Positions 1 through 62,786 of a stretch of DNA of 64,000 nucleotides are shown here, in pieces (the stretch's first letter is position 1; every line of letters starts with the position of its first letter). Source of the stretch: Labia minor (Eukaryota > Arthropoda > Insecta > Dermaptera > Spongiphoridae); contig OY720347.1 in assembly GCA_963082975.1 (NCBI GenBank), forward strand, positions 32,443,398 through 32,507,397, in the 5' to 3' direction. The notes beneath the pieces were generated by a model. The model had not been told where the DNA came from. It worked only from the letters and a program-made list of their open reading frames with translations, and did no database searches. Made by a program: the position numbers and the translations under genes.

Positions 1-492
1 TTTTTAATTTTATTTTATTTATAATATATTTATATGTAAGACCAGACTGTGACATCATGAATGGGTGGATGACGTCATATAATTTTAAATTAAGAAAAAA
101 CTAATAAAAATTATTTTTCTCGAGAATAAAACCAATACAAAGTACATGATTCGTGGTGATATGTATAAAATCTCATCATGTGAAATTTGGTGTGAAAATA
201 ACCCTTCCCTTCCTATCGTCGTTCGCTAATACTACCACTTCCGGTTTCCGGATTTGCACCAAAAGTGGATCAATTCATCCCACTGATGCATTAAGTAAAT
301 ATACCAAATTTCATCAATATCCGTTCAGCCGTTCAGGCTGTACACATCTATATGGACTGACGGACGGACAGAGATCATGCTAAAAATACTTTTTTCTGTT
401 AAGAAAATGCATGATTTGTGGAGATATGTAAAAATCTCCACATGTGAAATTTGGTGTGAAAACAATACCTCCCTTACTATCGTCGGTCGGTA
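1..492 (-). mobile_element. HINE-like family B element, copy B1, cut by window edge
   Basis: The right end reads CGTCGGTCGGTAAAAA, which is the 5' terminus ACCGACCGACG of family B on the minus strand. The interior has the two related blocks around CACACCAAATTTCACATG, the GTCCGTCC-type tract, and the GATGAAATTTGGTA box (here reverse-complemented). The 3' part with the terminal hairpin lies outside the window. No coding capacity is visible. The family is recognised from nine copies or fragments in this window. Confidence 0.8.
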
Positions 493-5300: not shown

Positions 5301-5876
5301 TCGTTTTTTTTTCTAGTGCCATTTCCAAACGTGCACATTTACCTCTTTCCTTGTCTATTCATTTTGCATAATTTTCACTCACAATTTTTACAGTTATTTG
5401 ACATATCATCTTCAATTCAAAATCAAAATCACGAAAATGAATATATTTTTTTTTGTTCAATGTTTAATAAAATTAGATTTATTAAATAATTATATAATAT
5501 GAAAACATATTTTTTATATATTATATACAATTTTTTATTATTTCCCTTATTTCAAGGATTATGCCAAGGTTTTTTACTTGATTGCTGATGTTAAAATCTT
5601 AATGCTTGAATGAACATTTCAAGAAATATTATTTACGAATTATGTCAAGATATAATATATAGTTTATATATCAATAAAGTAATAAAAAAAATATCAATAT
5701 TATTTGTATTCCTTCCTGTTATAGAACAAATACTGAAATCTTTCTCTACAATTTCAAAATCACAGAAATGAATCGCTCCGACAGGATGTGAATATTAAAT
5801 TTCAAGAAAAATAAATTTTAAAAATTGTTACTGTTAAATATCCATTATTGCCATGGTCATTTATTTTTAATTTTTT
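5301..5876. other. AT-rich DNA, nothing recognised
   Basis: Pyrimidine-rich near 5280-5380, then AT-rich. No gene-like feature seen. Confidence 0.6.
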
Positions 5877-6310
5877 ACCGACCGACTTAAGGGAGGTATT
5901 GTTTTCACACCAAATTTCACATGTGGAGATTTTTACATTTCTCCACGAATCATGTGCATTTTGATAACAGAAAAAAGTATTTTTAGCATGATCTATGTCC
6001 GTCCGTCCGTCCGTATAGATGTGCACAGCTTGAACGGCTCAACGGATTTTGATGAAATTTGGTATATTTACTTAATGCATCAGTATGATGAATTGATCAA
6101 CTTTTGGTGCAAATTCGGAAACCGGAAGTGGTAGTATTAGCGATCAACGATAGGAAGGGAAGGATTATTTTCACACCAAATTTCACATGAGGAGATTTTT
6201 TACATATCACCACGAATCATGCACTTTGTATTGGTTTTATTCTCGAGAAAAATCATCTTTATTAGTTCTTTCTTAATTTAAAATTATATGACGTCACATC
6301 CTGGTCTTTG
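5877..6310 (+). mobile_element. HINE-like family B element, copy B2, 3' truncated
   Basis: It starts TTTTTTACCGACCGACTTAA; the usual GATAG after the inverted repeat is lost. It keeps the (GTCC)n tract at about 5998-6012, the GATGAAATTTGGTA box, the GGAAACCGGAAGTGGTAGTA block and the second CACACCAAATTTCACATG block. It stops at TGACGTCACATCCTGGTCTT, so the 3' inverted repeat and hairpin are missing. Confidence 0.8.
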
Positions 6311-8157: not shown

Positions 8158-9062
8158 CTAGCTGCCCCGAGCGCCTTCGGCGCTCTCCGCACCTAGACGG
8201 GGGCTCCGCCCCCTGTACCCCCCGAGTAAAAGGTTTTCATCCATTTTGTTTCAATCAGTATATTACATAAAACATTCATTTCTTTTTGTGTTTTCTTATT
8301 TAAAATACATTTTAATTTAATCACTAAATTAATTATATATATTATTATTGTATATGTTATATCTATCTATCTATGTGACTCTAAGGAACTCGAAAGTTCT
8401 AGGCCGCAGCAACCACATTTCTCCAAGTGTCCCTATCCTGAGCCCTTGTCCCATCTCTCTTACGTCCCTTCCTACACGTCCTTGGTCTTCCAAGCGGACG
8501 TTTTCCAATCCAAAATCTTTTTCCTCTCCCATTCTAGCCGCGTCCCCTGCCTATCACAGCTTTTTCGCTTTTATAACCCTAACTATTTCTGAAGATGCAT
8601 AGAGGTCATGCAATTCCTCGATGTGCAGTCTCCGCCATTCCCCGGTGACCTCATCTTTCTTTGGCCAATAAATGCTGGAAAGAATAGTCTGGATCTACTC
8701 TCATCTCCCAGGGTCATAGACCTTGCGTCCTACCCATATAATACAACAGGCAAAATAATTGGTTTATATATTTTAATTTTGATTCCTTTTGATAATAATT
8801 TTGATGAGATAAGCCTGTTTACTGCATGATAACAGGTGTTTCCCGATTACAACTTCGATTTAAATATATATATTCTTCTCAAATATTATTATCCTTCGTG
8901 ATTACATTCAATTTTTCTACATATTCAAATTCTACATTTTGTATATAGATTTTGTTACTAAATATTTTTTCTTATCACCATTAATTTCAATCTGAATTAG
9001 AAGAAAATTATAAATTACCTCCTCTTGCAGCCCATTTACCTATCCAGGCATCTTAATTTCTT
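8158..9062 (-). mobile_element. composite RTE/Helitron-tailed element, copy C1
   Basis: On the minus strand the right part carries broken RTE reverse transcriptase C-terminal coding: TGYHAVNRLISSK-like sequence, an LHDLYAS region, GRPRT-like sequence and a final LRPRTFEF. After it comes a non-coding tail: ATTGAAACAAAATGGATGAA, hairpin GGGGGCGGAGCCCCC, hairpin GAGCGCCGAAGGCGCTC, and the end CAGCTAG|T at 8158. The far right (8990-9062) matches sequence upstream of the RTE part in C2. Many stops make it non-functional. Confidence 0.7.
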
Positions 9063-10227
9063 AACACTCCGTTTTTTTTAAATTTAAAATAAAAGGAGAT
9101 AAATAGTTTTAAATTATATTCGAATGGTCTATTATATTCTATATATCAGTATTTTTTTCTGAATTTAATACCAACTTGATTTTCAAAATGTTCCATTCGT
9201 TATCCATATGATTGATTACATGTGTTAAAATTTAAAAAAAATTCAAATATTCTAATTTTTAAATTTAAATACAATTGAATATTATTTTTTATTAATATCA
9301 TATCAAAAAAGAGAATTTATTAAAAATTAAAAATAAAAAAAGAAGCCTATTAATAAAAAAATATAATAGAATACAATAATTTTGATTTAAAACAAATTTT
9401 AATTTTAAAAAAAATACTCAATATAAAAAAGACATAAATTTAAAACATCTCGTAATATCATTTGTCTAAAAAACATATTTTAATTAACCAAGAAATCATT
9501 TTTGCACTTAAAATATATTTGTAATTAATAATTGAAACAAAAAAAAATAATAAAATTTTGTCATTTTAATTGAAGTTTTGAAAATATTTTTGTATTGATA
9601 AAAGTTTAAAAATAATATATTCAGTTTTTTTAAGCTTTCACTTTCAAATAGAAAAGAAGAAATATTCAATTATATAGAAAGAATAAATAAAAATTAAGTT
9701 AAATATGATCTAAATATTTTATTAAATAAATTTAAATGAGAACTTTTAGAATAAATTATTTAATTTAATTGATATTTAAATATTAGAATTTAAAATAAAA
9801 AGTGAAATATTATAATAATTTTTAAATTCTGAGCAATATGCAGACAAAAACCTTTTTTTTATATATAGATAGTCGAGCTGGGGATGGCAATATGGGTTTT
9901 TCCAAAAAAAGAAAGTTACCTTCCCCCCCCCCCCCCCCGAGGCCCTAGTAGGGATTAATTTAATTATTTATTATATTTCAAAGGAATATTTTAATATCAT
10001 TTTAAATGAATGAATGAAAATTCAAATTTTATATAGTTTTTTATATATGTTTATTTATGCAGAAAAAATTAATTGACATAATTATTAATTTAATAAAATA
10101 AAATTTAATAATAAAATTTAATTTAATAAAATAAAATTATTTTAATAATAAAATTTAATTTAATAAAATATTAAAATAATAAAAATTAATAAATTTAAAA
10201 AAAAAATATATAATACTTAAAGAAAAA
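9063..10227. other. AT-rich DNA with a poly-C tract
   Basis: Mostly featureless AT-rich sequence. A run of about 15 C lies near 9925-9940 within GTCGAGCTGGGGATGGCAAT...GAGGCCCTAG, a short GC-richer island of unknown origin. Confidence 0.5.
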
Positions 10228-10300
10228 AATGTGCCTTTGCAAGTTTCGAACTCAGGGTGCAAAGTCATAAGAAGACGCGCTAGCTCGCTCGGCCAGGAAC
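10228..10300 (-). repeat. tRNA-derived SINE-like head
   Basis: On the minus strand TGGCCGAGCGAGCTAGCG resembles a leucine-type tRNA A-box region (around 10279-10294), and GAGTTCGAAAC resembles a B box (10243-10253). The intervening length and lack of a clear cloverleaf suggest a retroposed derivative and not a working tRNA gene. Confidence 0.5.
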
Positions 10301-10344
10301 CGCTTTTGTTTGGAAGCTTCTTATAAGGGTATATATAAGATTTC

Positions 10345-10565
10345 AAATTTTTGCCACCAGCGCCTCTATGAGCTAGTATGGTAACTAAACTATTTTTAAT
10401 TAATTAGCATTTCCTGGACACACCTTACCAATTAGCGGTTTTCTAAAGGAAGTCTGACATGCCCTGAGACCTACTGAATATACATAAAAAATTTCATAAG
10501 AATCAGTCAAGCCGTTTCGGAGGAGTATGATTTCAAAGTTTTGTGACACGAGAATTTTATATATA
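10345..10565 (+). repeat. retroposon 3' region (SINE/LINE tail type)
   Basis: It contains TTTCATAAGAATCAGTCAAG, CCGTTTCGGAGGAGTATG and GTGACACGAGAATTTTATAT, words I associate with the 3' parts of abundant arthropod SINE/LINE repeats. That association is from memory of the family type. It lies directly beside the tRNA-like head, in the opposite orientation. Confidence 0.45.
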
Positions 10566-10648
10566 AGATATATATTATTAAAAATAAATATTTTTAATTT
10601 TATTTCGAAATTTATTTTATTTTAAAATATTTTAAATATAAAAAAAAT

Positions 10649-18776: not shown

Positions 18777-20136
18777 CTAGCTGCTCCGAGCGCCTTCGGC
18801 GCTCTTCACACCTAGACGGGGGCTCCGCCCCCTGTACCCCCGAGTGATACATAGTATTTGGTTGAAAGTCTGTATGTAAAAGATTTTCATCCATTTTGTT
18901 TCAATCAGTATAAGTAGATAAGACATGTATTTGTTTTCTTGTAAAATATATCTAATCCAAAACATACCTGTTAAAAAGGAGGAGTTATTTGTTTGCCTAA
19001 AAAAGGGTTCAAATCCATCCCAATGCCAAGTTTAGATGCACTTGTTTGTTAATTATCATCCCATGTCCCTTCCTTCATTGTCCACCCACCTTGGTCCTTG
19101 GTCTTCCACCGGATGTTTCCCAATCGGTTTCTCCCAATTTCTAGTTTCTCCAATTCCAACCACGTCCCCTTCCCATCCCAGCCTTCTTGATTTTATAACC
19201 TTAACTATATCTGGACATTATATCTCGTTATGCCATCTCCGCCATCCCCCTGTGACCTCATCTTCTTTTGGCCTATAAATGCTGCGAACAATATTAATCT
19301 CACAAATACTCCAAATCGCCTCCCAGAGTCATCGATAGGGTGACCAAACGTCCCGTCTTTAGGTGCTCTGTCCCAAAAGAGTCTTCGGGACACCCTACTG
19401 TTTTTTCAATATTTAGGACATTTCGTAATTATTTTTTCAAAATTTTTTCAATTTAGTTCTAAAAATAAAGGTATACCGTTTGTCCCGGTTTGGTGTTTTC
19501 ATCGATCAACATGAAAAATAATTGTTTTATATATTTTAATTTTGATCCTCTTTGATGAGATAAGCCCCTTTACTGCATAATAACAGGCGTTACACAATTA
19601 CAACGTCGATTTAAATTCTTCTCGAATATTATTATCCTTCGTGATTAGAGATCTTAAGTATTTAAATATTTATACTTTTTCAAATTCTACATTTTGTATG
19701 TTAATTGTATATAAGTCGTATCCGTATCATAATTCTTGAATTTTTTTGTTTAATTACATTTCGGTTGATTTTTGCCCAATTTCTCTAATCACATGTCTCC
19801 TCTTCCAGTCCAATTCATTTACCTGGCTTAAGAAATTTTTTAAAATTTTAAACAGAGGGAGAGAGAGAGGTTCTAATTATATATATATATCTGTTTCTAT
19901 GACAACAAAAAAGTAAACAAATTACATACATTACAAATACTCTCCTTTATATATATTTCTGGAAAATGGAACACCCGCAGCTCAGCTCAGGAGTTACCTA
20001 AGATTCTAATTTCTTTTTTATTTTTCATCATTTGAGGTACCCTTCACCTCAGAAAAATTTGGTTACCTTACTCCTTGTAGTTTAGGCTCTGGAGTTTTTT
20101 GCGTACAGACGGACACTATCGTATTAAATATATAGA
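18777..20136 (-). mobile_element. composite Helitron-ended element with captured RTE, copy C2
   Basis: Read on the minus strand it starts at 20136 with A|TCTATATATTTAATACG. About 170 bp later comes a second similar start, ATATATAAAGGAGAGTGTTT-like. Next are broken RTE coding (AFKS..NACY.AVKGLISSK, later NFRV-like) interrupted by a hAT MITE, then the tail with GGGGGCGGAGCCCCC and GAGCGCCGAAGGCGCTC hairpins, ending CAGCTAG|T at 18777. Sister copy C3 has the same two ends in unrelated flanks, so this is a mobilised unit. TC start, CTAG end, preceding hairpin and A/T insertion fit Helitrons; the RTE tail may instead be a LINE 3' end. Confidence 0.7.
19337..19498. mobile_element. hAT-type MITE nested in C2
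   Basis: It is flanked by an 8-bp direct repeat TCATCGAT (19329-19336 and 19499-19506), the hAT signature length. The left end is AGGGTGACCAAACG. In C3 the opposite end reads AGGGCGACCATATT, so the terminal repeat is AGGGYGACCA; C2 has lost part of its right end. It includes the paired words GTCCCAAAAGAGTCTTCGGG. No transposase. Confidence 0.7.
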
Positions 20137-25030: not shown

Positions 25031-25804
25031 AAAACACTTTTATACAAAATTAATTTTTAAACAAAATATATATAAAACCAAAAAGATTCGAAATTTGACT
25101 CAAAATGTTTGCCATCTATAAATTTAATATAATTAATATATTTAATAAATTATTAATAGTTTTTTAATTATTAAAATCGCTTTTTGAAATGAATAAATAA
25201 AATCAAAAAAATTCACTTAAAATAAAATTAACAAAACTTATCAAGGTAAAGTTTAGAGTGTATATTATTGTGGTCACCTGTACTATTTTCCTTAGAAAAA
25301 GTAATAGTTCATCTATTTAACAAATGACAGGTAAATTTATAAAAATTGTATACATTTTTAATCACATATCTCTTGGAGATTATATTAAGATAATCATTTA
25401 GGAGGTGGGAGAGAGGAAAAGTAAAAAAAAAACATTTTTTAATTAATGTTTTATTATTTTTCTTATCGTTCTATTTTATCTTATTTTGTCATATTCGATT
25501 TTTGTTTTATTTTTTTAATGTTAATTAAATATTTACAATTTTAAAATCAAATTATAGATAAATAAGAATAAAATCTAAATTTAACTTTAAATTAGTAAAA
25601 ATATATATTTTAAATTATACAAATTAATTATTTAGATAGATATTCGTATTTGCCAATTTGTAGAAAATTAGTCTCAATCCAATAAAATTAATAAATAAAT
25701 CTTAGAAACAAATAAAAAATTTTAATATAAAATAAAATATGTAAATAGATTATTTTATAAAAAACTCATTTCAATACATTTTTCGAATCTTTTTAAGTAT
25801 TTTT
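25031..25804. other. AT-rich DNA, nothing recognised
   Basis: No gene-like feature seen. Confidence 0.6.
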
Positions 25805-26450
25805 ACCGACCGACGATAGTAAGGGAGGTATTGTTTTCACACCAAATTTCACATGTGGAGATTTTTACATATCTCCACGAATCATGCATTTTCTAAACAG
25901 AAAAAAGTATTTTTAGCATGATGTCTGTCCGTCCGTCTGTCCGTCTGTCCGTCCGTCTGTCCGTCCGTCCGTCCGTATAGATGTGTACAGCCTGAACGGC
26001 TCAACCGATTTTGATGAAATTTGGTATATTTACTTAATGCATCAGTGGGATGAATTGATCAACTTTTGGTGCAATTCCGGAAACCGGAAGTGGTAGTATT
26101 AGCGATCGACGATAGGAAGGAAAGGGTTATTTTCACACCAAAGGAGATTTTTTTATATATCACCACGAATCATGCACTTTGTATTGGTTTTATCCTCGAG
26201 AAAAATCATATTTATTAGTTTTTTCTTGATTTAAAATTATATGACGCCATCCAGCCATTCATGACGTCACAGTCTGGTCTTACATATATATTATAAATAA
26301 AATAAAATTAAAAATATTTATGTTATATCCATATCTGTTTTTTATTACATTAATAGATATATTAAAATTATTTGAAATTGTTTCTGTAGCTGGAAATTAA
26401 TTTATTTCAAACAGTCGGTCGGTTCGGACCTGGCCACAGGTCAACTTATT
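25805..26450 (+). mobile_element. HINE-like family B element, copy B5 (complete)
   Basis: It starts ACCGACCGACGATAGTAAGG after a T run and ends with inverted GTCGGTCGGT, a GACCTG-GCCA-CAGGTC hairpin (26427-26442) and AACTTATT. It holds an expanded GTCC/GTCT tetranucleotide tract (25925-25978), CCTGAACGGCTCAACCGATT, the GATGAAATTTGGTA box, GGAAACCGGAAGTGG, and two TGACGTCA-type words near 26245-26270. The CACACCAAATTTCACATG block occurs once intact and once shortened, so the element has internal duplication. Non-coding, 646 bp. Confidence 0.85.
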
Positions 26451-27548: not shown

Positions 27549-29368
27549 TCTATATATTTAATACGATAGTGTCCGTCTGTACGCAAAAAACTCCAGAGCC
27601 TAAACTACATGGAGTAAGGTAACCAAATTTTTCTAAGGTGAAGGGTACCTCAAATGATGAAAAATAAAAAAGAAATTAGAATCTTTAGTAACTCCTGAGC
27701 TGAGCTGCGGGTGTTCCATTTTCCAGAAATATATATAAAGGAGAGTGTTTGTATGTATGTAATTTGTTTACTTTTTTGTTGTCATAGAAACAGATAAATA
27801 TATATATAATTAGAACCTCTCTCTCTCCCTCTATTTAAAATTTTAAAAAATTTCTTAAGCCAGGTAAATGAATTGGACTGGAAGAGGAGACATGTGATTA
27901 GAGAAATTGGGGAAAAATCAACCGAAATGTAATTAAACAAAAAAATTCAAGAATTGTGCTACGGATACGACTTACATACAATTAACATACAAAATGTAGA
28001 ATTTGAAAAAGTATAAATATTTAAATACTTAAGATCTCTAATCACGAAGGATAATAATATTCGAGAAGAATTTAAATCGACGTTGTAATTGAGTAACGCC
28101 TGTTATTATGCAGTAAAGGGGCTTATCTCATCAAAGAGGATCAAAATTAAAATATATAAAACAATTATTTTTCATGTTGATCGATGAGAAGGGCGACCAT
28201 ATTTCGAAAACACCAAACCGGGACAAACGGTATACCTTTTTTACCGACCGACGATAGTAAGGGAGGTATTGTTTTCACACCAAATTTCACATGTGGAGAT
28301 TTTTACATATCTCCACGAATCATGCATTTTCTAAACAGAAAAAAGTATTTTTAGCATGATGTCTGTCCGTCCGTCCGTCCGTATAGATGTGTACAGCCTG
28401 AACGGCTCAACCGATTTTGATGAAATTTGGTATATTTACTTAATGCATCAGTGGGATGAATTGATCAACTTTTGGTGCAATTCCGGAAACCGGAAGTGGT
28501 AGTATTAGCGATCGACGATAGGAAGGAAAGGGTTATTTTCACACCAAAGGAGATTTTTTTATATATCACCACGAATCATGCACTTTGTATTGGTTTTATC
28601 CTCGAGAAAAATCATATTTATTAGTTTTTTCTTGATTTAAAATTATATGACGTCATCCAGCCATTCATGACGTCACAGCCTGGTCTTGCATATATATTAT
28701 AAATAAAATAAAATTAAAAATGTTTATATTTATTATTTATGTATCCATATCTGTTTTTTATTACATTAATAGATATATTAAAATTATTTGAAATTGTTTC
28801 TGTAGCTGGAAATTAATTTATTTCAAACAGTCGGTCGGTTCGGACCTGGCCACAGGTCAACTTATTTTAGAACTAAATTGAAAAAATTTTGTAAAAAAAA
28901 TTACGAAATGTCATAAATATTGAAAAAACGGGACAGTAGGCTGTCCCGAAGACATTTTTGGGACAGAGCAACTTGGAGAAACTAGAATTGGGAGAAACCG
29001 ATTGGGAAACATCCGGTGGAAGACCAAGGGCCAAGGAGGGTGGACAATGAAGGAAGGGACATGGGAGAGATGGGACAGGGTAGGATTTGGTGGATGCTGC
29101 GGCTAAGAACTTTCGAAAACTGTAGAGACACAGAGTTAGATAAATATAACATATACAATAATAATATATAATTAATTTACTCATTAAATTAAAATATATT
29201 TTACAAGAAAACAAATAAATGTCTTATGTACTTATACTGATTGAAACAAAATGGATGAAAACCTTTTACATACAGACTTTCAACCAAATACTATGTATCA
29301 CTCAGGGGTACAGGGGGCGGAGCCCCCGTCTAGGTGTGAAGAGCGCCGTAGGCGCTCGGAGCAGCTAG
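27549..29368 (+). mobile_element. composite Helitron-ended element with captured RTE, copy C3
   Basis: It begins A|TCTATATATTTAATACGATA (27549) and ends GAGCAGCTAG|T (29368) with the same hairpin tail as C1, C2, C4 and C5. The order is: 5' end; second 5'-like start ATATATATAAAGGAGAGTGT at about 27730; RTE coding (NNIREEFKST, NACYYAVKGLISSK); remains of the nested hAT MITE; HINE B6; RTE C terminus (KNFRK-like) near 29110; tail. Without B6 it is about 1.2 kb. Flanks differ from C2 on both sides, so the unit moved as a whole. Confidence 0.7.
28243..28866 (+). mobile_element. HINE-like family B element, copy B6, nested in C3
   Basis: Nearly identical to B5 over its length, with a shorter GTCC tract (28363-28382) and hairpin GACCTG-GCCA-CAGGTC at 28843-28858. 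C2 holds the empty site: reading GGTATACCTTTATTTTTAGA there against GGTATACCTTTT|element|TTTTAGAAC here places the insertion inside a T run with no visible target duplication. That fits Helentron insertion between T and T. Confidence 0.85.
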
Positions 29369-35480: not shown

Positions 35481-36378
35481 ATGATGGATCCTGGTGGTAC
35501 CATATTATATATATATATATAAAAATACACCTTAACAAATTGTTATCTGTACTTAAAAGATTAAATAATCGTGAAATGGATACACAGAGAAAAGAAAAAT
35601 ATACACAAAGCTAAGAGTTGAGAGAGAATATTTTCTAATAAATCCTACTACTAGCATATTAAGTTTATTTTTTACAATAGACGAGAAAAAAAATTCAAAT
35701 TATTATTAATGAGTTTTAGAGATATTAACTTTTTAAAAAGGAAATTTTAATTCTATTCAATTTCATATCTCTGCAAAAAAATGACAAAGATATTTAATTA
35801 AAATATAGAATTACTTTATTAAATATTAATTATTTGATTAGAACAACAGGTATAATATTAATCAATCACATATTCAATAATATATACTAATTTATTTAAT
35901 TTTTTTATTAATAAATATTTCCTTTGTACTCGTCGAAGTTACTTTATATTTATATATCTAATATTTTATACCATTAATTGTAATCAATAATGAAATTAAA
36001 ATAAATAAATAAATAAATAATAATAATGTATTATATATTATATAAAATTTTGTGTTAATTTTATTGTAATTTTGTGTTGATAAAAGACTTTACATTATTC
36101 TATGTCATTATTAATACTATTCTATATTTTATAATATAAAATTATTTTTTTGTTTTTATGTAATTATATAAATGAAAATTTATATAGTCTAAAAAAATGT
36201 AAATTTTTATATTCTTTGGTATATGTGTGTTAAATTAGAATAAACGTGAATGTTATTAGCAAGTTTTTTTTAATTTCGTTGGTATATTTAAAAATTTGAA
36301 TATGGTCCCATAAAGATAGATATATGTGATAATACATGCACATCTCCATCTTCATTTCAAATTTAATATGACTTTTTT
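35481..36378. other. AT-rich DNA, nothing recognised
   Basis: Short (AT)n at 35507-35522 and (AATA)n near 36001-36025. No gene seen. Confidence 0.6.
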
Positions 36379-36968
36379 ACCGACCGACGATAGTAAGGGA
36401 GGTATTGTTTTCACACCAAATTTCACATGTGCACGAATGCATTTTCTTAACAGAAAAAAGAATTTTTAGCATGATGTCTGTCAGTCCGTCCGTCCGAATA
36501 GATGTGTACAGCCTGAACGGCTCAACGGATTTTGATGAAATTTGGTATATTTACTTAATGCATCAGTGGGATGAATTGATCAACTTTTGGTGCAAATCCG
36601 GAAACCGGAAGTGGTAGTATTAGCGATCGACGATAGGAAGGGAAGGGTTATTTTCGCACCAAATTTCACATAAGGAGATTTTTTATATATCACCACGAAT
36701 CATGCACTTTGTATTGGTTTTATTCTCGAGAAAAATCATTTTTATTAGTTTTTTTCTTAATTTAAAATTATATGACGTCATCCAGCCATTCATGACGTCA
36801 CAGCCTGGTCTTACATATATATTATAAATAAAATAAAATTAAAAATATTTATGTTATATCCATATCTGTTTTTTATTACATTAATAGATATATTAAAATT
36901 ATTTGAAATTGTTTCTTTAGCTGGAAATTAATTTATTTCGGTTCGGACCTGGCCAGAGGTCAACTTAT
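36379..36968 (+). mobile_element. HINE-like family B element, copy B8
   Basis: It starts ACCGACCGACGATAGTAAGG, with a deletion of the GGAGATTTTTACATATCTCC segment near the 5' end. It has GTCC repeats (36478-36496), the GATGAAATTTGGTA box and both CACACC/GCACCAAATTTCACAT blocks. The 3' inverted repeat is shortened to CGGTT, followed by the hairpin GACCTG-GCCA-GAGGTC (one mismatch) and AACTTATT. Confidence 0.8.
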
Positions 36969-39284
36969 TATTATTTAAAATCAATCAAATTTAATTTTTT
37001 TAAAATCCTCTATAGTCTAAAATTTTTAAAAAATTTACCTAGATTAGAAATTACATATATGTGGAGAGATAATATCATAAAACTTTAAAAACTATTTAGA
37101 TTCAATAATAATAATAATAATATAATAAGACAAATAATAAAATAAAATATTTGAACCAATATTTCTTTGTGTGAGGAGCCCTCTGCTACTAAATAAATAT
37201 ATCTAGAGAGTAAACAATAGAAAATAATATTTATCTCTTCATAATAAATAAGTTATAATATAAACAGCGATATATTCACAATATTATTTTAACTTTACTT
37301 ACGATTTACGATAGTTAGGAGTAGAATTAATTATAATTATTGATCAAATGATAAATTATTTTTTCCGCCAAAATATTGATTAAAATAAATAATGTTTTTT
37401 TATTTGGCAACCATTTTCTTGCATCTGCACAAAACCAATAATACATAGTATACAATTTTAAAAAAGTATTATCTAAGGAAGAATTAGAAAAAAGGGAGGG
37501 GGAAATTAATCAAGGTTAGAATAGGGCATATTACTCATTTTTATTCCAAATTACGGAATTTCTGCAAAAGTAGGTTCAACCAGGTTCTTTATTTCTACAG
37601 TTCATTAGGTTTAAGTCTTTTTAGACTTTTGTCTTTCACATCACAGATCGATACTAACCTATCTTAATAAATTATAAAAATTAATTTACTGTTAAAACAT
37701 GATGTCTAACACTATGTCGCTTTTGATAATTCTTGTTCGCAAAATTCACATTTCATTAATCCATCAATCCTTTATTCCTTACAATTCCTCCCTTTATCTT
37801 TTCAATTTGTTTTTTTTTTTAATTTATTTTTAATTTGAGGAATATTGACTACGAGCTCAAATTATTTAGCACCTATCAATTTTTATGTTAAATCTGGGTC
37901 TTTATTGGTCTGATATTCTAATTGTTTTCCCACATTATTAAACTTTCACTAATCTGACAGCAGTCATTCAAGATTAATGATCTGAAAAAAAAAAAATTAA
38001 AACAACAAATAATAATGTTAGAAATTTAAAATACTTTATGTACTTAAAAAAATAACAAGTTGTAATTATAAACATTGGATTTAATAGGAAAAGAAAGTCG
38101 TTTACAAATGATAACACAAAAAGGTTAAAAAGATTATAATATAATATTTAGGTTCTAATACATATATATTATATGCAAATTCAAATTGTAAATACAGGAA
38201 GGATATGAAAATTCAAATAAAATATAATTATGTAAAAGAATTAAAATACTTGGATTTGTTATTTGCATTAAGTTTTTGATCAATAAATTTATAATGTTAT
38301 TAATATATATATATATGTATTTTGTATTATATTTAAACTCATTGATATAATTATAAAATATTTTATTTATTTATTTGACAGTGCTGATTAAATGACCAAC
38401 TCTAAAGTGTATTTATCCTTTCAATATAATAAATAATCAATCATCATTAATATTTTTACATTTCATATTTTGTTAATAATATTGAACAATTTAAATAATA
38501 TCAACTGAAATGAAAAGAAAAATTTAAATTGATTTTCTCATTTCAACACAAAATATGTAGAAAAAATGTAGAAATAAAAATATTTTATAAATTTTTTTTA
38601 TACATATAATATATTTTCTTATTCATGATAAAATTTAAAATTTACATGTTTATTAAAATGATTGAGGAGATACTTGAGAATTCAATATTGACAAGCAATA
38701 CTCTATATGCCCACCATTTATCTAATGTTATCCGTGAGTTTATGATAGCATGATTGATTATCTCTTCACTTTGAAATACAAAAAAAAAAAAAAAAAAATC
38801 ATATGAAAAAAATGTTTGTATCGAAAATTATGTTTCCAATCGGCATGATGTTTATAAATGAGAAAGGATTTTCAAAAACAATTAGAAAATTGAATTTTTA
38901 TAAAATCTATTCGGTATTTTTATTTTTATGTTCACTCTTTGTAATATTTTAGATAATTATATGGCTTATATACGATATCGAATAATATATTTTTTTTTAT
39001 TCTTTTTCCTAATGCCTTTTTATTACAGGGTAAATGTGGATCATGTCTTCGATCAGTAAATAAGTATATATATATATATACTCTAATAATAACTTTTTAT
39101 GAATTAGACAAATTTATTCACATTAATCTTATACTACAATTGGCTATATTAACATTTATTATCATATCTCCAAATTATTGATCAAGTTAAATTTCTATTA
39201 AATTAAATTTAATTTGTACCGTTAAAAAAAATGTATTATGAATATACGGACAGCCAGCAGGATATGTGAACGTTTACAAATGAA
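36969..39284. other. AT-rich DNA, nothing recognised
   Basis: The longest stretch without a recognisable repeat or gene. 37530-37950 is slightly less AT-rich. Poly(A) runs at about 38781-38798 and (AT)n at 39066-39080. Frames are short and low-complexity. Confidence 0.6.
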
Positions 39285-53530: not shown

Positions 53531-54371
53531 GACATAATTGGCAAAGGAGGTTATCATAACTATATAAATAATAAAAATAATAATAAATACGTATATATAT
53601 ATATTAAATTTTAATAATGGAATTTGTTTGAAAATTGACAAGAGAGAAAGATTCGACATAATAATGTTTAAGAGAGAAGATGAAAAACGAATTAATTAAA
53701 ATTATATTCCATTCAATTAAATTGTAATATGAATGAAATTTATTGAAATATCTTTATTCATAAATTAAGTATTGATTAAAACTAAAAATAGGATATTATT
53801 ATTATATTCAGTCTGTTCATATCTAATTAAATTCTAATCAATTGTATGCATACTGTCAAAATTTAATTGATTAACTAAGGTTGTCTTAGTCAATTGGTTA
53901 GCCATGTATCTCATTCAAGAAATGTATATATACATATATATTTATAAATAATAAAGATTAGTGAAACATTATTATTACAATCTGTTATATTTCATATTAA
54001 TTTCATCAATATCATTGTGTTCTATTTCATTAACTGAATATTGATATTCCCGTAGATTTTACTAAAATTATAAGGGTGATTTTTATAATAGTGGGATGGA
54101 GTGAAAGATATATTTACAAAAAATGTCTCACAAATGTTTCGCAATTTTTTCGGCACCCAATAAGTGACTTTCTTGTGCTAACAAAAATGAAAATTTTATT
54201 TAAAATGTTAATAAATTTAGATATAAGAATATCTGTTCTAATTATAAAAATAAATGGAATAATAGGTTAGCTTTCATATTATATTTAGCAACCAAAATAA
54301 CAATAAATAGTTACACTATAAAAACTGAGATGTCATACTTCGATAATGAATTATGCTTTGTGCCATTTTTT
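53531..54371. other. AT-rich DNA, nothing recognised
   Basis: A degenerate TCACAAATGTTTCGCAATTT/TTTCGGCACCC word near 54125 weakly resembles the motif at 20676. No gene seen. Confidence 0.5.
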
Positions 54372-55006
54372 ACCAACCGACGATAGTAAGGGAGGTATTG
54401 TTTTCACACCAAATTTCACATGTGGAGATTTTTACATGTCTCCACGAATCATGCATTTTGTTAACAAAAAAAAATATTTTTAACATGATGTCTGTCCGTC
54501 CGTCCCTCCGTCCGTATAGATGTGTACAGCTTGAATGGCTCAACGGATTTTGATAAAAATTGGTATATTTACTTAATGCATCAGTATGATGAATTGATCA
54601 ACTTTTGGTGTATATCCGGAAACTGGAAGTGGTAGTATTAGCGATCGACGGTAGGAAGGGAAGGTTTATTTTCACACCAAATTTTTTTCACATGAAGAGA
54701 TTTTTTAGCTATCACCACGAATCATGCACTTTGTATTGGTTTTATCTTCGAGGAAAATCATCTTTATTAGTTTTTTCTTAATTTAAAATTATATGACGTC
54801 ATCCAGCCATTCATGACGTCACAGCCAGCGCCTCATATATTACATTATAAATAAAATAAAATTAAAAATAATTATTTTATATCCATATCTGTTTTTATTG
54901 CATTAATAGATACATTTAAATGATTTGAAATTATTTCTGTAGCTGGAAATTAATTTATTTCAAACCCTCAGTCGGTTCTGTGCCTGGCCACAGGTCAACT
55001 TATTTC
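54372..55006 (+). mobile_element. HINE-like family B element, copy B9 (complete)
   Basis: It starts ACCAACCGACGATAGTAAGG, with GTCC repeats (54492-54515), the GGTATATTTACTTAATGCAT block, TGGAAGTGGTAGTATTAGCG, and paired TGACGTCA-type words near 54795-54825. The 3' end is CAGTCGGTT, a CTGTG-CCTGGC-CACAG hairpin, then GTCAACTTATT. The hairpin combines features of the B5/B6 and B7 versions. Confidence 0.85.
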
Positions 55007-56436: not shown

Positions 56437-56520
56437 TCTATATATATAAAGGAGAGTGTTTGTATGTATGTATGTATGTATGTAATTTGTTTACTTTTTT
56501 GCTGTCATAGAAACAAACAA
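56437..56520 (+). mobile_element. Helitron-type 5' end fragment
   Basis: A|TCTATATATATAAAGGAGAG then TGTTTGTATGTATG repeats, ATTTGTTTACTTTTTTG and TGTCATAGAAACA match the second 5'-like start inside C2 and C3 (about 27730-27795). After about 85 bp the similarity stops. It begins with TC after A, as Helitron 5' ends do. Confidence 0.5.
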
Positions 56521-56610
56521 AAAAGAAATTTCCTACTTAACCGACACTTTACCGGTAATTTAAAATTATGAACATCAAAAAATAAGAAACGATTTCTATG
56601 AAATTACATC

Positions 56611-57471
56611 TGTAAGGAGGACCGTTTCAAGTTGGGGTCACTTTGTAGACGATCCTCTTACGTTGGGTGCCAATTTATAAGGGGATCTAAGTATGGGGCA
56701 CTTGTAATGATCCACGATGACCGTGAATTGTTAATTATGTTAAGTTAATGATGGGCGCCAACTTTGGATATCCCAAAGTATAAAATAGTGTTGAAAAATT
56801 AAGGGAAAAGGGAAAACACAATAATAATGTTCACATTAATTTACTTTAATTAAATAGATAAAAAAATTAACAAATTAAATATACAAATTTTAAATAGAAA
56901 AAAATAAGAAAATGTAATTCACTATTGTCACTGGAATTAGCAGAAATAATTATCACAGGGGGTGATGATAAGGATTATACACAAATAATTATATCACGGG
57001 ACGTGATAAGTATAGGTTATATCAGGATGATATCACTTGTTCGACTGTATCACAGGGTGTGATAAAAATGATTATATACAAAATAATTATATCACGGGAC
57101 GTGATAAATACCAGGTCATATCGGGATGATATCACTAGTTAAACTGTATCACAGGGTGTGATAATAAAAATGATTATATACAAAATAATTATATCACGGG
57201 ACGTGATAAATACAGGTCATATCAGGATGATATCTCACTAGTTCCACTGTCCATTCTCAACTGCTAAAAAATATTAAAACTTGGGATGGATCCTCCCCTT
57301 ATGTCGAAATATATCTCTATATATATATTACATTTTAAGAATAATGCGACCAAATAACTTTGTTAATAAAATAGGGGAATAGAAAAACAAAATAAACTAA
57401 AAAATAGATAAACAAAATAAAATGTATAATAAAAAAAAATAACTAAGAATAAAAATACTTTGTCCGTTACA
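56611..57471 (-). repeat. 3' LTR
   Basis: 861 bp, minus strand, ends TGTAA/TTACA. It contains palindromic satellite-like units (56951-57240) and three extra PBS-like words near its right (U5) end. Differs from the 5' LTR by about two substitutions. Confidence 0.9.
56951..57240. repeat. tandem ~100-bp units of ATCAC...GTGAT palindromes in the LTR
   Basis: Three tandem units, each with TATCACAGGGTGTGATA-type and TATCACGGGACGTGATAA-type palindromes and a GGATGATATCAC word. The copy in the other LTR is at about 60560-60850. Such clustered short stems could be transcription-factor sites or RNA hairpins; the function is unknown. Confidence 0.75.
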
Positions 57472-57485
57472 TCCTCCCCCTCTGA
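57472..57485 (-). promoter_or_regulatory. polypurine tract
   Basis: The minus strand reads AGAGGGGGAGGA directly before the TGTAACGG start of the 3' LTR, the expected plus-strand primer. Confidence 0.85.
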
Positions 57486-57515
57486 TTCCGAGGTCTTTTG
57501 ATTGAGGGATCAGCC

Positions 57516-58151
57516 TTAGGAACGGACAATTTTTGGCCTTCCTCGCTTACTTAGAGGAACTAGTGGAGTAGAACGCGTGTCGTGGCTTAGACGCAATGCT
57601 GATGAATGAGGGGGAACAAGTCCTTGAGTAAATAATTGTTTTTGAGTTTGTGGTGGCTCCATAACTCCTGGTGGGCCCCGATGGGCTCTCGGAGACCCCA
57701 CCAGCTGTCTATATCGGACAGCAGGATCTTCTTTGCTGATATTGGTACCGTCCATGGTTTCGACAGCCCTTTGCAGCGCATTCAAACAACCGCCTGTGTT
57801 TATATCATGTCCAGCGTAAGGAGTTGGCTCTCCCCCTGGTTGAAAGACAGTTTCATGTTCTTTTAATAAATGGGCAAGTTTTATGTTCTGTTCCTCAGTT
57901 AGCTGAATAGTGTTTTCAACAACAGTATTATTTTCTTCAGTGGTGCAGAGATTTTCTCGAATAAATTTGTATTTTCTCTTAGGATAATTATGAAAATACC
58001 AGCGATTGTTTCGCATATCTAATACTAAACCTGCTTTTCTGAGGAAGTCAAGACCTAATAGTGATCTATTTCCACTAACATTGGGTAGGAATATCATTTC
58101 TATATGTATTATTTGATTTTTGATTTTTACAGGAACTGTAGCTAATAACAC
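57516..58151 (-). pseudogene. pol remnant: protease end, RT start, fused to pol C terminus
   Basis: A minus-strand frame of about 211 residues. The first part (LLATVPVKI, NRSLLGLDFLRKAGLVLD) is the second half of a retropepsin. Then TEEQNIKLAHLLKEHETVF and PGGEPTPYAGHDINTG match the linker just before the RT domain in Ty3/gypsy Pol. At about residue 120 it jumps to a P/R/S-rich tail ending SKRGRPKIVRS, typical of the extreme C terminus of Pol after integrase. So RT, RNase H and integrase were removed by one internal deletion. It overlaps the gag frame by 10 nt in another frame; there is no start ATG (first codon GTG). Confidence 0.8.
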
Positions 58152-59485
58152 GGAATGTATACGCTTTTCCCGTCAGCTAGAGTTAAGGAAAGATTATCTA
58201 CTTTAAAATGTTCTCCTCGTTGTCTTAAATAGCTGAGAAGACGCTGACCGCCAATAGAGCGAGTGGCTCCGCTGTCAACGCAAATAGAACCAGAAGCTTC
58301 ATAGATGGAGGCTTCTATTAGAGCGAGTTTAGTATCTCTATCTGTAGTAACTTTACACTGTAAGGCTTGTGCGTTGGTAATTTCCTGGTTCGGATTGCAA
58401 GTTAGACACCTAGGTTTGGTGACTCCTGGAGTTCCGCAGCCGTAGCAACGAAGTGTTGAAGAGTCAGTCTCTTCTTTTTGTTTTTCACGAGGTTGTGAGT
58501 TTCTAAAGGGTTTCCGATCATAATATTTCGATTTAGGGGGTTCGATAGATTTATTTGAAGGGATTGTTTTTGAAAATGGGGCCCTTAAGTTATCATAGGA
58601 GTCGAATTTTTCTGCGAGATCGAGGGGATCTACCAGTGTTTCCCAAGAGTCGAGGAAGTGATCTTTGCATTCGGATGAACACTTTCTCTTCATTTGATCA
58701 GCTAGGATCAAATTTTTAAGTTGATCAAAATTTTCAATTTTTAGATCGGATAGCCAGGCTTCTAGATAACCGCGTAGATTGAAGTAAAAATCTTTCCAAG
58801 TGTTTTCCGATGTCTTCTTGGAGGTGGAGAAAAGTTTTCTTATTTTATCCGTAGTTAATTTAAATCGGTGAAGTAGGAGCTTCTTAATATGTTGATAGTC
58901 TTGGGCGACTTCATTTGGTTCTCTAATTATTAGAGTGGTAATATCTGTGGGTAAGACCGAAATAAGATAAGTGACCCATGCATCCTCAGATATGCCAAGA
59001 AAATTCATTTGTCTTTCGAAAAGACGCAGATACGTATTAATATCGTCATCGTTAATTTTAAATAGAGGTAAGAATTTCAATATATCTACTTTCGGTTGAA
59101 GTGGGGTTGGTGATTCTACCTGGTTCACTACGGTTTGAATTCGGAGTTTCTCTAGTTCAAATTGTCTTTCCTTCTCCTTTTCTTCTCTTTCATCTTTCTC
59201 CCTTTCCCTCTCTCTTTCTTCTTTCTCCCTTTCCCTCTCTCTTTCTTCTTTCTCTCTTTCCCTCTCTCTTTCTTCTTTCTCCCTTTCCCTCTCTCTTTCT
59301 TCTTTTTCCTTCCTATCCTCTATGATGGTCATAAGTAATTCCCGTGTAAGGTCTTCATCATAATCAGGCAATGACGTGATGTCATTTTTTATATCGATCC
59401 TACGAGAATCTAAATTCATAACTATTCCTAATTCCTGTGCTAAAAGGATAAGATCCTCCTTTTTCCCTTTGCCGAAAAATGACAT
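58142..59485 (-). CDS. Gag-protease N-part, SCAN-like Gag (447 residues)
   Basis: It starts MSFFGKGKKEDL. Residues 57-108 are a highly charged E/R/K coiled-coil made of about 9-residue repeats (27-bp DNA repeats at 59170-59310). 137-300 is a SCAN-like Gag capsid region as seen in some arthropod gypsy elements (YLRLFERQM, DYQHIKKLLLHRFKLT, YLEAWL, ILADQM). 347-363 is a degenerate Cys cluster (CYGCG, CLTC). 402-407 is the protease active site VDSGAT. The frame ends IPCY at the point where the protease continues in the -1 frame at 58151. No slippery heptamer is obvious, so a one-base loss is more likely than programmed shifting. Confidence 0.85.
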   Translation of the reverse strand: MSFFGKGKKEDLILLAQELGIVMNLDSRRIDIKNDITSLPDYDEDLTRELLMTIIEDRKEKEEREREREKEEREREREKEEREREREKEEREREREKDEREEKEKERQFELEKLRIQTVVNQVESPTPLQPKVDILKFLPLFKINDDDINTYLRLFERQMNFLGISEDAWVTYLISVLPTDITTLIIREPNEVAQDYQHIKKLLLHRFKLTTDKIRKLFSTSKKTSENTWKDFYFNLRGYLEAWLSDLKIENFDQLKNLILADQMKRKCSSECKDHFLDSWETLVDPLDLAEKFDSYDNLRAPFSKTIPSNKSIEPPKSKYYDRKPFRNSQPREKQKEETDSSTLRCYGCGTPGVTKPRCLTCNPNQEITNAQALQCKVTTDRDTKLALIEASIYEASGSICVDSGATRSIGGQRLLSYLRQRGEHFKVDNLSLTLADGKSVYIPCY

Positions 59486-60106
59486 TTTTAATAGGATAAT
59501 TAAATTTAATGTTAACCAAAGAGAAATAAAAAAAATTAATTAATTAATCAAAATTAAAAGTTATTTAGTCGCGTACAATTGAATTATACAATGTTTAATT
59601 ATAAAATAAGATAATTGAAATATAATTTAAAATATGTAAGAGTATTTAAATATTTGAAAATATAGTGATATTTTATCAATTTTATTAATTCATTAATTTA
59701 AATATAATGTAGTAGAATAAAATTTAAAGTTTAAAAAAAAAAATTTTTTTTTTTCACAAATTAAACATATAAATTGATTAATTATAATTAATTGATTATA
59801 ATTAATAATAATATTAATATATTCAAACTATTTTTATTGAATTAGAATTAAATAGATAAATATTCTATTTGTTAGATAAATGTGAAAATTAAAAATAAAA
59901 TAAAAAAATTAACAAGTGTTAAATCTTATTATATGTATTAAACAAGAAGATATAATTTATTTAAATTTAAAGTATAAAAGTAAAAGTTTTAAATTTCTAT
60001 TTTATTAATTAAATATTAAATTGTACTATAAGTCCGTTGAGATGAAAAAAAATGATGATACTGCTCACCAAAGATGAATAATGTACTTTTCTCAGGAGCC
60101 GTGGTG

Positions 60107-60219
60107 TACTAATCGGGCTTCACGTTGGGATGCCACTTTGTAAGGATGACTAATCGAGCCAAACGTTGGGCTGCCACTTTGTAAAGAGGACTAATCGAGC
60201 CCCACGTTGGGCGCCACTT
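60107..60219 (-). repeat. tandem PBS-like units next to the 5' LTR
   Basis: Three about 41-bp units, each carrying CTTTACAAAGTGG / CCCAACGT / CTCGATTAG. The unit touching the LTR (60199-60216) is the true PBS, and two degenerate copies lie inside (TGGCAGCCCAACGTTTGGC; TGGCATCCCAACGTGAAGC). Further PBS-like words lie inside the LTR (60232-60290 and about 60355-60375). Confidence 0.8.
60199..60216 (-). promoter_or_regulatory. primer binding site, tRNA-Lys type
   Basis: TGGCGCCCAACGTGGGGC on the minus strand, three nt after the LTR end. This is the well-known complement of a lysine tRNA 3' end used by many Ty3/gypsy-type elements and some retroviruses. Confidence 0.85.
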
Positions 60220-61080
60220 TGTAAGGAGGACCGTTTCAAGTTGGGGTCACTTTGTAGACGATCCTCTTACGTTGGGTGCCAATTTATAAGGGGATCTAAG
60301 TATGGGGCACTTGTAATGATCCACGATGACCGTGAATTGTTAATTATGTTAAGTTAATGATGGGCGCCAACTTTGGATATCCCAAAGTATAAAATAGTGT
60401 TGAAAAATTAAGGGAAAAGGGAAAACACAATAATAATGTTCACATTAATTTACTTTAATTAAATAGATAAAAAAATTAACAAATTAAATATACAAATTTT
60501 AAATAGAAAAAAATAAGAAAATGTAATTCACTATTGTCACTGGAATTAGCAGAAATAATTATCACAGGGGGTGATGATAAGGATTATACACAAATAATTA
60601 TATCACGGGACGTGATAAGTATAGGTTATATCAGGATGATATCACTTGTTCGACTGTATCACAGGGTGTGATAAAAATGATTATATACAAAATAATTATA
60701 TCACGGGACGTGATAAATACCAGGTCATATCGGGATGATATCACTAGTTAAACTGTATCACAGGGTGTGATAATAAAAATGATTATATACAAAATAATTA
60801 TATCACGGGACGTGATAAATACAGGTCATATCAGGATGATATCTCACTAGTTCCACTGTCCATTCTCAACTGCTAAAAAATATTAAAACTTGGGATGGAT
60901 CCTCCCCTTATGTCGAAATATATCTCTATATATATATTACATTTTAAGAATAATGCGACCAAATAACTTTGTTAATAAAATAGGGGAATAGAAAAACAAA
61001 ATAAACTAAAAAATAGATAAACAAAAAAAAATGTATAATAAAAAAAAATAACTAAGAATATAAATACTTTGTCCGTTACA
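60220..61080 (-). repeat. 5' LTR
   Basis: 861 bp partner of 56611-57471. Promoter and polyadenylation signals were not separately resolved. Confidence 0.9.
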
Positions 61081-61084
61081 CATC

Positions 61085-61755
61085 ACAATATTCTTATATA
61101 TCTCTATGGTAACATAGGCTATAGATTTTATTAATATCTAATTCTAATCAATAACCGCAGAATTTAATTTTTTAAAGTTTATATAGTTCTCCGTGTTGTT
61201 CATTCAAGAGCCAGGCGTGGCCCACTGACTGGCGGACTCATTTTACACAATGTATATAACTAGCAATCAAAGAATTATTATAATATTTAACTTTTTATTT
61301 TAAATTCTAATATTCAAATATCATTTCAATTAAATAATTTATTCTAAAAGTTCTCATTTTAATTAATATAATAAAATATTTAAATCATATTTAACTTAAA
61401 TTATTTTGTATTTATTCTTTCCATATTTGAATAGGTACTTCTTTAATTTTAAGGGAGGTAATTAACTATGATCTAAAAAAATTAATAAATGAACTTAATA
61501 ATAAAAAATCAAATAAATCCATTAATTTAAATTAATACTATTAATGAATGTATATATTGTTAATTTATCTTTAGTTTTATCAATACTTTTATACCGTTAA
61601 TTTTTATAAATTGTCTCAAGTCTCTAACTTTGCATTTTCTCAAATTTTATTATAATTAAAAATATTCAATAAAAATCAAGCAATGAAATTAAAATAACAA
61701 AATGAAATGATCAAGAAATATTATACTCTATTATAACATATACAATACTTATAAC
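61085..61755. other. AT-rich DNA, nothing recognised
   Basis: A short GC-richer word (GAGCCAGGCGTGGCCCACTG, a near palindrome) is near 61210. Otherwise featureless. Confidence 0.5.
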
Positions 61756-61759
61756 TATA

Positions 61760-62786
61760 GGCGGAGGAAATATTAGACGATATCATTGCGGGTTCATGCC
61801 AAATCGATCAACATTAATTAAGATATTTTCATTATGACAGATATTAAAAAAACCGCGAATTCAATATCTCTGTTCACTAATTATTTGTAGACTTTAGTAA
61901 AACCTACGCATGACTCAATAGATCCGGATAAACTTTTTCAAATTTTGATCTTAAAATATATCTTGAAGGTAGTAAAGAAAGAGTAAGATGCGGAAATCAA
62001 TTGTAAAATATTAGGTGACTCAGACGACTTAAATATAATAGGAGATTCGGCAATTGCAATTACAGATAGCGAGGAAAAATTAATCGAGGTAGGAAAAGAG
62101 ATGAGGTTTGAAATTAATAATGATAAATAAATATATTTAGAAACAAACAGGAGCAGTATTAACAAACAAAATGTAGAATTTGAATATGTAGAAAAATTGA
62201 ATGTAATCACGAAGGATAATAATATTTGAGAAGAATTTAAATCGAAGTTGCAATCGGGAAACGCCTGTTATCATGCAGTAAAGAGACTTATCTCATCAAA
62301 ATTATTATAAAAGGGAATGAAAATTAAAATATATAAAACAATTATTTTGTCTGTTGTATTATATGAGTGTGAGACATGGTCTATGATCTTAGGAGATGAG
62401 AGTGGATTCAGAGTATTTGAGAATAGGATTCTTCCCAGCATTTATGGGCCAAAGATGAGGACACCAGGGAATGACGTAAGAAAGATGGAACAGAGGCTCA
62501 GGATAAGGACACTTGGAGAAATGTGGTTGTAGCTGCCAAGAACTTTCGAGTAGATAGTTATAACATATTCAATAAAAATATATATAATTAATTTACTGAT
62601 TAAATTAAAATATATTTTAAATAATCACAGAATAAGAAATGAATGTTTTATGTTATACATTGATTGAAACAAAATGGATGAAAACCTTTTACTACTTTCA
62701 ACCAAATACTATGTGCCATTCGGGGGTACAGGGGGCGGAGCCCCCGTCTAGATGTGAAGAGCGACGAAGGAGCTCTGAGCAGCTAG
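61760..62786 (+). mobile_element. RTE-type non-LTR retrotransposon remnant with hairpin tail, copy C5
   Basis: This is the longest RTE coding stretch. AGSCQIDQH-like and TKPRIQY pieces (start of RT palm), SKYI-like sequence, GDSAIAITDSEEKLIEVGKE (thumb side, 62050-62100), EFEYVEKLNVITKDNN, FKSKLQSGNACYHAVKRL, then the clean frame 62317-62532 with KIKIYKTIILSVVLYECETW and FRVFENRILPSIYGPKM. The C-terminal NFRV is at about 62540. The tail with GGGGGCGGAGCCCCC, a mutated second hairpin and GAGCAGCTAG|T follows. The RT catalytic YxDD region is not intact. Confidence 0.75.

What the first reader, a model, noticed from the sequence alone, without database searches (positions are those of the whole stretch)
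27549..29368. Composite mobile unit with Helitron-type ends carrying an RTE fragment
C2 and C3 begin at the same base (A|TCTATATATTTAATACG) and end at the same base (hairpin, CAGCTAG|T) in unrelated flanks, matching Helitron rules: TC start, CTRR end, 3' hairpin, insertion at A|T, no duplication. Inside they carry the C-terminal coding of an RTE retrotransposon and an ancestral hAT MITE. It looks like a Helitron that captured a retrotransposon piece and then multiplied, or a retrotransposon whose 3' end has become a functional Helitron terminator.
Basis: partly seen in the sequence, partly recalled or inferred. Interest (0 to 1): 0.75.

Follow-up and report, generated by a model that had tools for sequence, protein, structure and literature searches.

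The report
Helitron carrying a retrotransposon insertion
This is a non-autonomous rolling-circle transposon (a Helitron) that copies itself around the genome together with a broken piece of another jumping element that once landed inside its family; it is well documented here but is ordinary transposon biology.

Summary
C3 (27549-29368, +) and C2 (20136-18777, -) share exact ends, A|TC...CAGCTAG|T, with a hairpin 11 nt before the end. The 5' 17-mer occurs 1,345 times and the 3' 19-mer 3,253 times in the 604-Mb genome (reversed-pattern controls 1 and 0). They are non-autonomous Helitrons. An autonomous-looking partner was found: two RepHel elements (9,558 and 8,216 bp, open frames 2039 and 1722 aa) with the same 3' end (154 bp, 89.6%). 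Empty sites show clean A|T insertion in the copies testable. The RTE-like piece did not supply the terminator and was probably not captured by the Helitron: in a sister subfamily it is an 811-bp 5'-truncated LINE between 16-bp direct repeats (15/16 in the window copy), and two LINE-less Helitron copies show the pre-insertion site. The closest open-frame LINEs end without the tail. So a LINE landed in a Helitron and was multiplied with it. The C2/C3 subfamily has a newer 5' end upstream of a decayed older Helitron 5' end; several unlike 5' ends share this 3' end. New member of a known kind.

The parts
27549..29368 (+). C3, complete type I non-autonomous Helitron, 1820 bp
18777..20136 (-). C2, complete type I element, 1360 bp
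27549..27728 (+). type I 5' module, beginning TCTATATATTTAATACG after host A
27729..27792 (+). decayed type IV Helitron 5' end inside the element
   Evidence: 88-100% to type IV copies L071/L072 and RepHel locus L061
27978..28179 (+). LINE (RTE-like) coding piece 1
   Evidence: tblastn E 4.7e-6 for 27978-28133; blastn 83.8% to the type IV copy for 28039-28179
28187..28967 (+). hAT-like MITE lying in the LINE piece, itself split by the repeat 28237-28869
   Evidence: boundaries approximate
28237..28869 (+). dispersed repeat with Helentron/HINE look inserted into the MITE; absent from 8 of 8 type I loci L001-L008
28969..29144 (+). LINE coding piece 2 with the LINE 3' end
29145..29160 (+). 3' unit of the LINE target-site duplication, TATAACATATACAATA
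29161..29214 (+). Helitron body following the LINE insertion point, continuous with the unit in LINE-less copies L102 and L103
29215..29368 (+). Helitron 3' end shared with the autonomous elements
   Evidence: 89.6% over 154 bp to L092 and L093
29313..29327 (+). subterminal hairpin GGGGGCGGAGCCCCC
29341..29357 (+). terminal hairpin GAGCGCC-GTA-GGCGCTC, 11 nt before the end
29365..29368 (+). CTAG (CTRR) end, followed by host T
56437..62786 (+). type IV relative: 5' end at 56437, body resumes near 61078; the pieces are joined by inference across about 4.5 kb
61732..61747 (+). 5' unit of the LINE target-site duplication in the type IV copy
61748..62558 (+). 5'-truncated LINE insertion, 811 bp
62559..62574 (+). 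3' unit of the duplication (15/16)
8158..10568 (-). type II relative: same 3' end, 5' end TCTTATATATAAAATTCTCGTGTC after A, with LINE piece

Best explanation
C2 and C3 are non-autonomous Helitrons, moved in trans by a RepHel transposase of the same genome (the shared 3' end is shown; the movement is inferred). A 5'-truncated RTE-like LINE inserted into a Helitron of this family by target-primed reverse transcription (junction repeats and pre-insertion copies shown; the mechanism inferred). The Helitron kept its own TC 5' end and hairpin-CTAG 3' end and amplified with the LINE as passenger. In the C2/C3 lineage a new 5' end came to lie upstream of the decayed type IV one (shown by anatomy; order inferred), a hAT-like MITE entered the LINE piece, and C3 then took a further dispersed-repeat insertion.
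For: Exact common ends with host A and T in 10 of 10 complete elements; hairpin 11 nt before CTAG. Two RepHel elements with long open frames, Helitron_like_N at 6.7e-58 in L041, and the same 3' end in unlike flanks. Empty-site alignments for the autonomous C4 copy and type I elements L006 and L008. LINE junctions with TATAACATATACAATA on both sides, at least 252 copies of one 5' junction, and pre-insertion copies in 2 of 2 fetched. Type IV shares 357 bp of 5' region with the autonomous element at 84%.
Against: C3's flanks share 6 bases and no empty site was found for C3 itself. 14 of 35 tails have no recognised 5' end in the stretch searched. The type I 5' end agrees with the autonomous one in only 16 of 30 nt, so the partner's use of it is inferred; no RepHel element with a type I 5' end was looked for systematically. 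The donor LINE family was not found: the closest open-frame LINE is about 36-40% identical. The duplication in the window copy has one mismatch, and AT-rich sequence gives 15/16 somewhere within 60-nt pairs in 26 of 2000 shuffles and 5 of 2000 random window pairs, so the pre-insertion copies, not the repeat alone, carry that argument. The C-terminal half of the RepHel frame and its HUH motif were not inspected in one piece.
Confidence: 0.92

Rival explanations
1. The RTE-like retrotransposon's own 3' end evolved into a Helitron terminator, and the copies are basically retrotransposon insertions.
For: A LINE piece of 100 bp or more lies within 1.5 kb of 22 of 35 tails (four of the 35 also supplied the probes).
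Against: The tail ends RepHel elements that show no LINE between stop codon and tail in the stretch read. The LINE's own end lies inside, followed by the 16-nt repeat and Helitron sequence. None of 12 LINE loci holds either tail motif with up to 2 mismatches; these are 11 or so families, one or two copies each, and not the donor.
Confidence: 0.02
2. The Helitron captured the LINE piece at the DNA level (end bypass or filler-DNA repair).
For: Helitrons are reported to capture host fragments by read-through (passages of PMC4778049); the donor LINE copy was not found.
Against: 16-nt direct repeats at the junctions, a GATAGATAGA-like LINE 3' end, and LINE-less copies with a single unit are what LINE insertion leaves; capture predicts none of them.
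Confidence: 0.05
3. The subfamilies acquired LINE pieces independently.
For: Their 5' ends are unlike (as low as 7 of 30 nt), and LINE-region alignments between subfamilies run from about 74% to 95% identity.
Against: Types I, II and IV share the LINE 3' junction into TATAACATATACAATA and the following Helitron sequence (window 29145, 8361, 62559).
Confidence: 0.08

Closest known systems
Canonical animal Helitrons such as Helraiser/Helibat (PMC4778049, passages)
   Same: 5'-TC and CTAG-3' ends, palindrome 11 nt before the 3' end, A|T target, RepHel partner.
   Different: Different sequence families; no transposition was tested here; the cargo is a LINE insertion rather than a captured gene.
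Insect Hel1/Hel2 Helitron families (PMC6544945, passages)
   Same: Non-autonomous copies in insects between host A and T, 3' stem-loop, subfamilies defined by their ends.
   Different: There the 5' 30 nt are conserved and 3' ends vary; here one 3' end goes with several 5' ends. Sequences were not compared.
LINEs of the RTE kind in the same genome (L082, L083)
   Same: Closest open-frame relatives of the cargo, about 36-40% aa identity.
   Different: They end at TAGAGCCCAGGAG plus short repeats, without the Helitron tail; the cargo is decayed and truncated. RTE clade name recalled, not tested.
Helentrons/HINEs (PMC4067079, passages)
   Same: Rolling-circle relatives; the passenger repeat 28237-28869 has their look.
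   Different: C2 and C3 insert at A|T and end in CTAG, not at T|T.

Membership tests
Helitron | 5' end TC | tested here: met
   10 of 10 complete type I elements; the 5' pattern was the search key for 8 of them
Helitron | 3' end CTRR | tested here: met
   CTAG in 10 of 10 complete elements, found with up to 4 mismatches in the 18-nt tail, and in both autonomous copies
Helitron | hairpin about 11 nt before the 3' end | tested here: met
   17-nt hairpin, 11 nt from the end
Helitron | insertion between A and T without duplication | tested here: met
   A and T in 10 of 10; empty sites for L006, L008 and the autonomous C4 copy; not shown for C3 itself, whose flanks share 6 bases
Helitron | ends shared with a RepHel-coding element | tested here: met
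   3' end 28-29 of 30 nt; 5' end only 16 of 30
Helitron | rolling-circle transposition by RepHel | not testable with these tools
   needs a cell assay
RTE-type LINE (as identity of the whole unit) | unit ends in the LINE 3' end | tested here: not met
   the LINE ends inside, at 29144 in C3, followed by Helitron sequence
RTE-type LINE (as identity of the cargo) | LINE reverse transcriptase C-terminal coding | tested here: met
   RTE clade itself not tested
LINE insertion (as origin of the cargo) | target-site duplication and pre-insertion site | tested here: met
   15/16 nt in the window type IV copy; 2 of 2 fetched pre-insertion copies
Helentron/HINE (as identity of C2 and C3) | T|T insertion and subterminal inverted repeats | tested here: not met
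   host A and T in 10 of 10; such features were seen only in the passenger repeat

The most novel reading that the evidence does not exclude
In this genome Helitron evolution runs by turnover of the 5' end on one conserved 3' terminator: at least four unlike 5' ends (I-IV), besides that of the autonomous element, work with one hairpin-CTAG end, and type I arose by a new 5' end coming to lie upstream of an older one. The transposase would then need little of the 5' end beyond TC and an AT-rich stretch, and a resident LINE fragment can be handed from subfamily to subfamily.
Probability: 0.35. Interest if true: 0.45.

Novelty: new member of a known kind. Interest (0 to 1): 0.3.

Why it matters
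It is a clean natural record, with empty sites at two levels, of one transposon class landing in another and being amplified with it. It also shows that LINE sequence next to a Helitron terminus need not be a Helitron capture: looking for a duplication and a pre-insertion copy separates the two. The stepwise 5' ends offer material to test what a Helitron transposase reads at its 5' end.

Tried and rejected
I first took the sequence before the tail at C1:482149 for a helicase C-terminus (note). It is not; it resembles N-terminal RepHel coding, and that locus was dropped as the autonomous partner. A second RepHel family (L040, L042, L056, L057) starts A|TCTTATAAATAAAAATG in three copies whose start was fetched, but neither of the two 3' stretches fetched (L090, L091) holds the tail with up to 3 mismatches per motif; the same goes for the two 3' stretches of the L045 family (L096, L097). 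In L088, the fourth start stretch, the family's start was not seen. A first empty-site search with loose settings was noise and was replaced by a stricter one, both outputs being cut. ARAGORN found no tRNA in the window.

Literature: searches gave listings; passages were read of PMC4778049, PMC6544945, PMC3789558 and PMC4067079, none in whole. One search (Helitron, RTE, non-LTR, captured, non-autonomous) listed 9 papers, none showing such a case in title or abstract start; their bodies were not read, so no claim is made that it is unpublished.

Rows dropped: three tails with only a 45-bp LINE match (L014, L026, L037) are left out of the 22 of 35; with them it is 25 of 35.

Full report
Setting. 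The window lies at C5:32443398-32507397 of a 604-Mb genome in 71 contigs. The best two listed RepHel matches are insect proteins (Leptopilina heterotoma 63%, Macrosteles quadrilineatus 62%), so an insect is likely, but this was not tested.

Observation. C3 and C2 share exact ends. The 5' 17-mer occurs 657 + 688 times (reversed-pattern control 1 and 0), the 3' 19-mer 1561 + 1692 times (controls 0 and 0). Of 10 complete elements (8 loci and the 2 window copies) 10 have host A before and host T after; 7 share no flank bases, three share 4, 12 and 6, the last being C3 itself. A hairpin GAGCGCC-GTA-GGCGCTC ends 11 nt before the end; the last 64 nt fold with z -4.1 against 200 shuffles.

Autonomous partner. 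Helitron_like_N (PF14214) gives 104 matches in the genome, several in long open frames. L041 and L043 are 99.8% identical over the 3543 bases fetched, with open frames of 2039 and 1722 aa. In L041 Pfam gives Helitron_like_N at 6.7e-58 and the start of a PIF1 helicase just below its cut-off, the locus being cut there. Stretches fetched up- and downstream show elements at C5:34911465-34921022 and C4:72530932-72539147, both A|TCTATATATATAAAAAAAGG...CTGAGCAGCTAG|T in unlike flanks; the middle of each was not fetched in one piece. The last 154 bp of C3 match this 3' end at 89.6%, the last 136 bp of C2 at 92.6%. The last 30 nt agree 28 and 29 of 30; the first 30 nt of C3 agree in only 16. By the maize-based rule as described in PMC6544945 (family by 3' 30 bp, subfamily by 5' 30 bp) they are one family and different subfamilies; by that paper's own rule (family by 5' end) they would be different families (passages).

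Insertion sites. Flanks joined across the autonomous C4 copy align through the junction to uninterrupted sequence in the window and in L071-L073, L100 and L101, A next to T, without duplication. Type I elements L006 and L008 also have empty-site relatives; for L008 this rests on the last bases of a dispersed repeat. The output was cut, so this is a lower bound.

Several 5' ends. Among 35 tails (30 loci L009-L038, 5 in the window) the outer 5' end is type I in 9, type II in 6, type III in 5 and type IV in 1, with 14 unrecognised in the stretch searched, mostly 1.5 kb. Six of the 30 loci (L009, L023, L033-L036) hold elements also fetched by the 5' search. In 6 of the 9 type I elements, C3 included, the pattern test finds a type IV start inside; alignment finds it also in C2, at 181-245 of the element. 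The type IV start was seen with its host A in L071-L073, and a similar one stands at the head of RepHel locus L061. Type IV shares 357 bp of its 5' region with the autonomous element at 84%.

The LINE piece. Type IV copies share one LINE 5' junction: the 48-nt pattern occurs 136 + 116 times with up to 3 mismatches (controls 0 and 0). In the window copy the LINE spans 61748-62558 (811 bp) between TATAACATATACAATA and TATAACATATTCAATA. In L019, L031 and the window copy at 8361 the 3' unit is perfect and follows GATAGATAGA-like repeats. C3 keeps the 3' unit at 29145-29160; no second unit lies in C3, and C2 has none. A 15/16 match at the junction itself was reached by 1 of 20000 shuffles; anywhere in the two 60-nt flanks by 26 of 2000 shuffles, and by 5 of 2000 random window pairs. 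So the repeat alone is suggestive only.

Pre-insertion copies. The uninterrupted 36-mer gave 723 + 730 places with up to 3 mismatches (controls 0). Of the 100 listed, most read as the LINE 5' junction, and 8, by my reading of the table, look like pre-insertion sites. Two were cut out, L102 and L103. Both align with the type IV copy up to and through the unit, and again from the same unit on with the sequence that follows the LINE; the part missing is the LINE. L102 goes on to a diverged tail ending CAGCTAG|T. Two of two support insertion.

Control LINEs. Twelve LINE loci chosen from the 150 scored RVT_1 hits were read. L082 and L083, two copies of one family, are the closest to the cargo; their frames stop at TAGAGCCCAGGAG followed by TAAG or TAA repeats. 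None of the 12 holds either tail motif with up to 2 mismatches in the 1501 bases fetched. The donor itself was not found.

Later insertions in C3. A hAT-like MITE lies in the LINE piece (core present in 7 of 8 loci L001-L008) and is split in C3 by a repeat at 28237-28869 that 0 of those 8 loci carry.

Mechanism. Shown: ends shared with RepHel elements, A|T insertion in the copies that could be tested, LINE junctions and pre-insertion copies. Inferred: trans-mobilisation, target-primed reverse transcription, the order of events, and the replacement of an older 5' end. Helitron read-through is known from the Helraiser work (passages of PMC4778049), where new 3' ends arise; here it is the 5' end that changes on a constant 3' end.

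Noticed in passing
window 28237-28869, 36372-36973, 54366-55011, 5871-6301, 25800-26450 and 1-496 (-): Dispersed repeat of about 630 bp with T-rich borders, inverted ACCGACCGAC/GTCGGTCGGT near the ends (28243, 28830) and a palindrome ACCTGGCCACAGGT near the 3' end: the look of a HINE (non-autonomous Helentron)..
   Followed up: partly
L092 from about 890 to 1223, and L093: The autonomous element carries, 333 nt before its end, a second Helitron 5' start like its own (84% over 126 bp), so its 3' end may come from a short relative inserted downstream..
   Followed up: partly
L045-L051: RepHel family with seven nearly identical loci (99.94-100% in the pairs listed) and open frames of 1537-1652 aa; the two 3' stretches fetched repeat the frame end in tandem and hold no hairpin-CTAG tail of this kind..
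   Followed up: partly
L064-L067: Another RepHel group, 99.7-99.9% identical, open frames 1345-1785 aa, whose type was not determined..
   Followed up: no
G000:C5:46739897-46792979: Decayed Helitron_like_N matches with equal scores recur at about 9.8-kb and 5.7-kb steps, like a tandem array..
   Followed up: no
L012, L013, L022: Type III elements with two or three successive A|TC starts before one 3' end..
   Followed up: no
L024, about 278 nt before its tail end: Sequence shared with other tails starts inside the LINE piece at A|TCTCTAGATATAGG: a possible new TC start or a plain truncation..
   Followed up: no
window 56437-62786: Type IV copy whose two parts lie about 4.5 kb apart, probably through a later insertion..
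   Followed up: no
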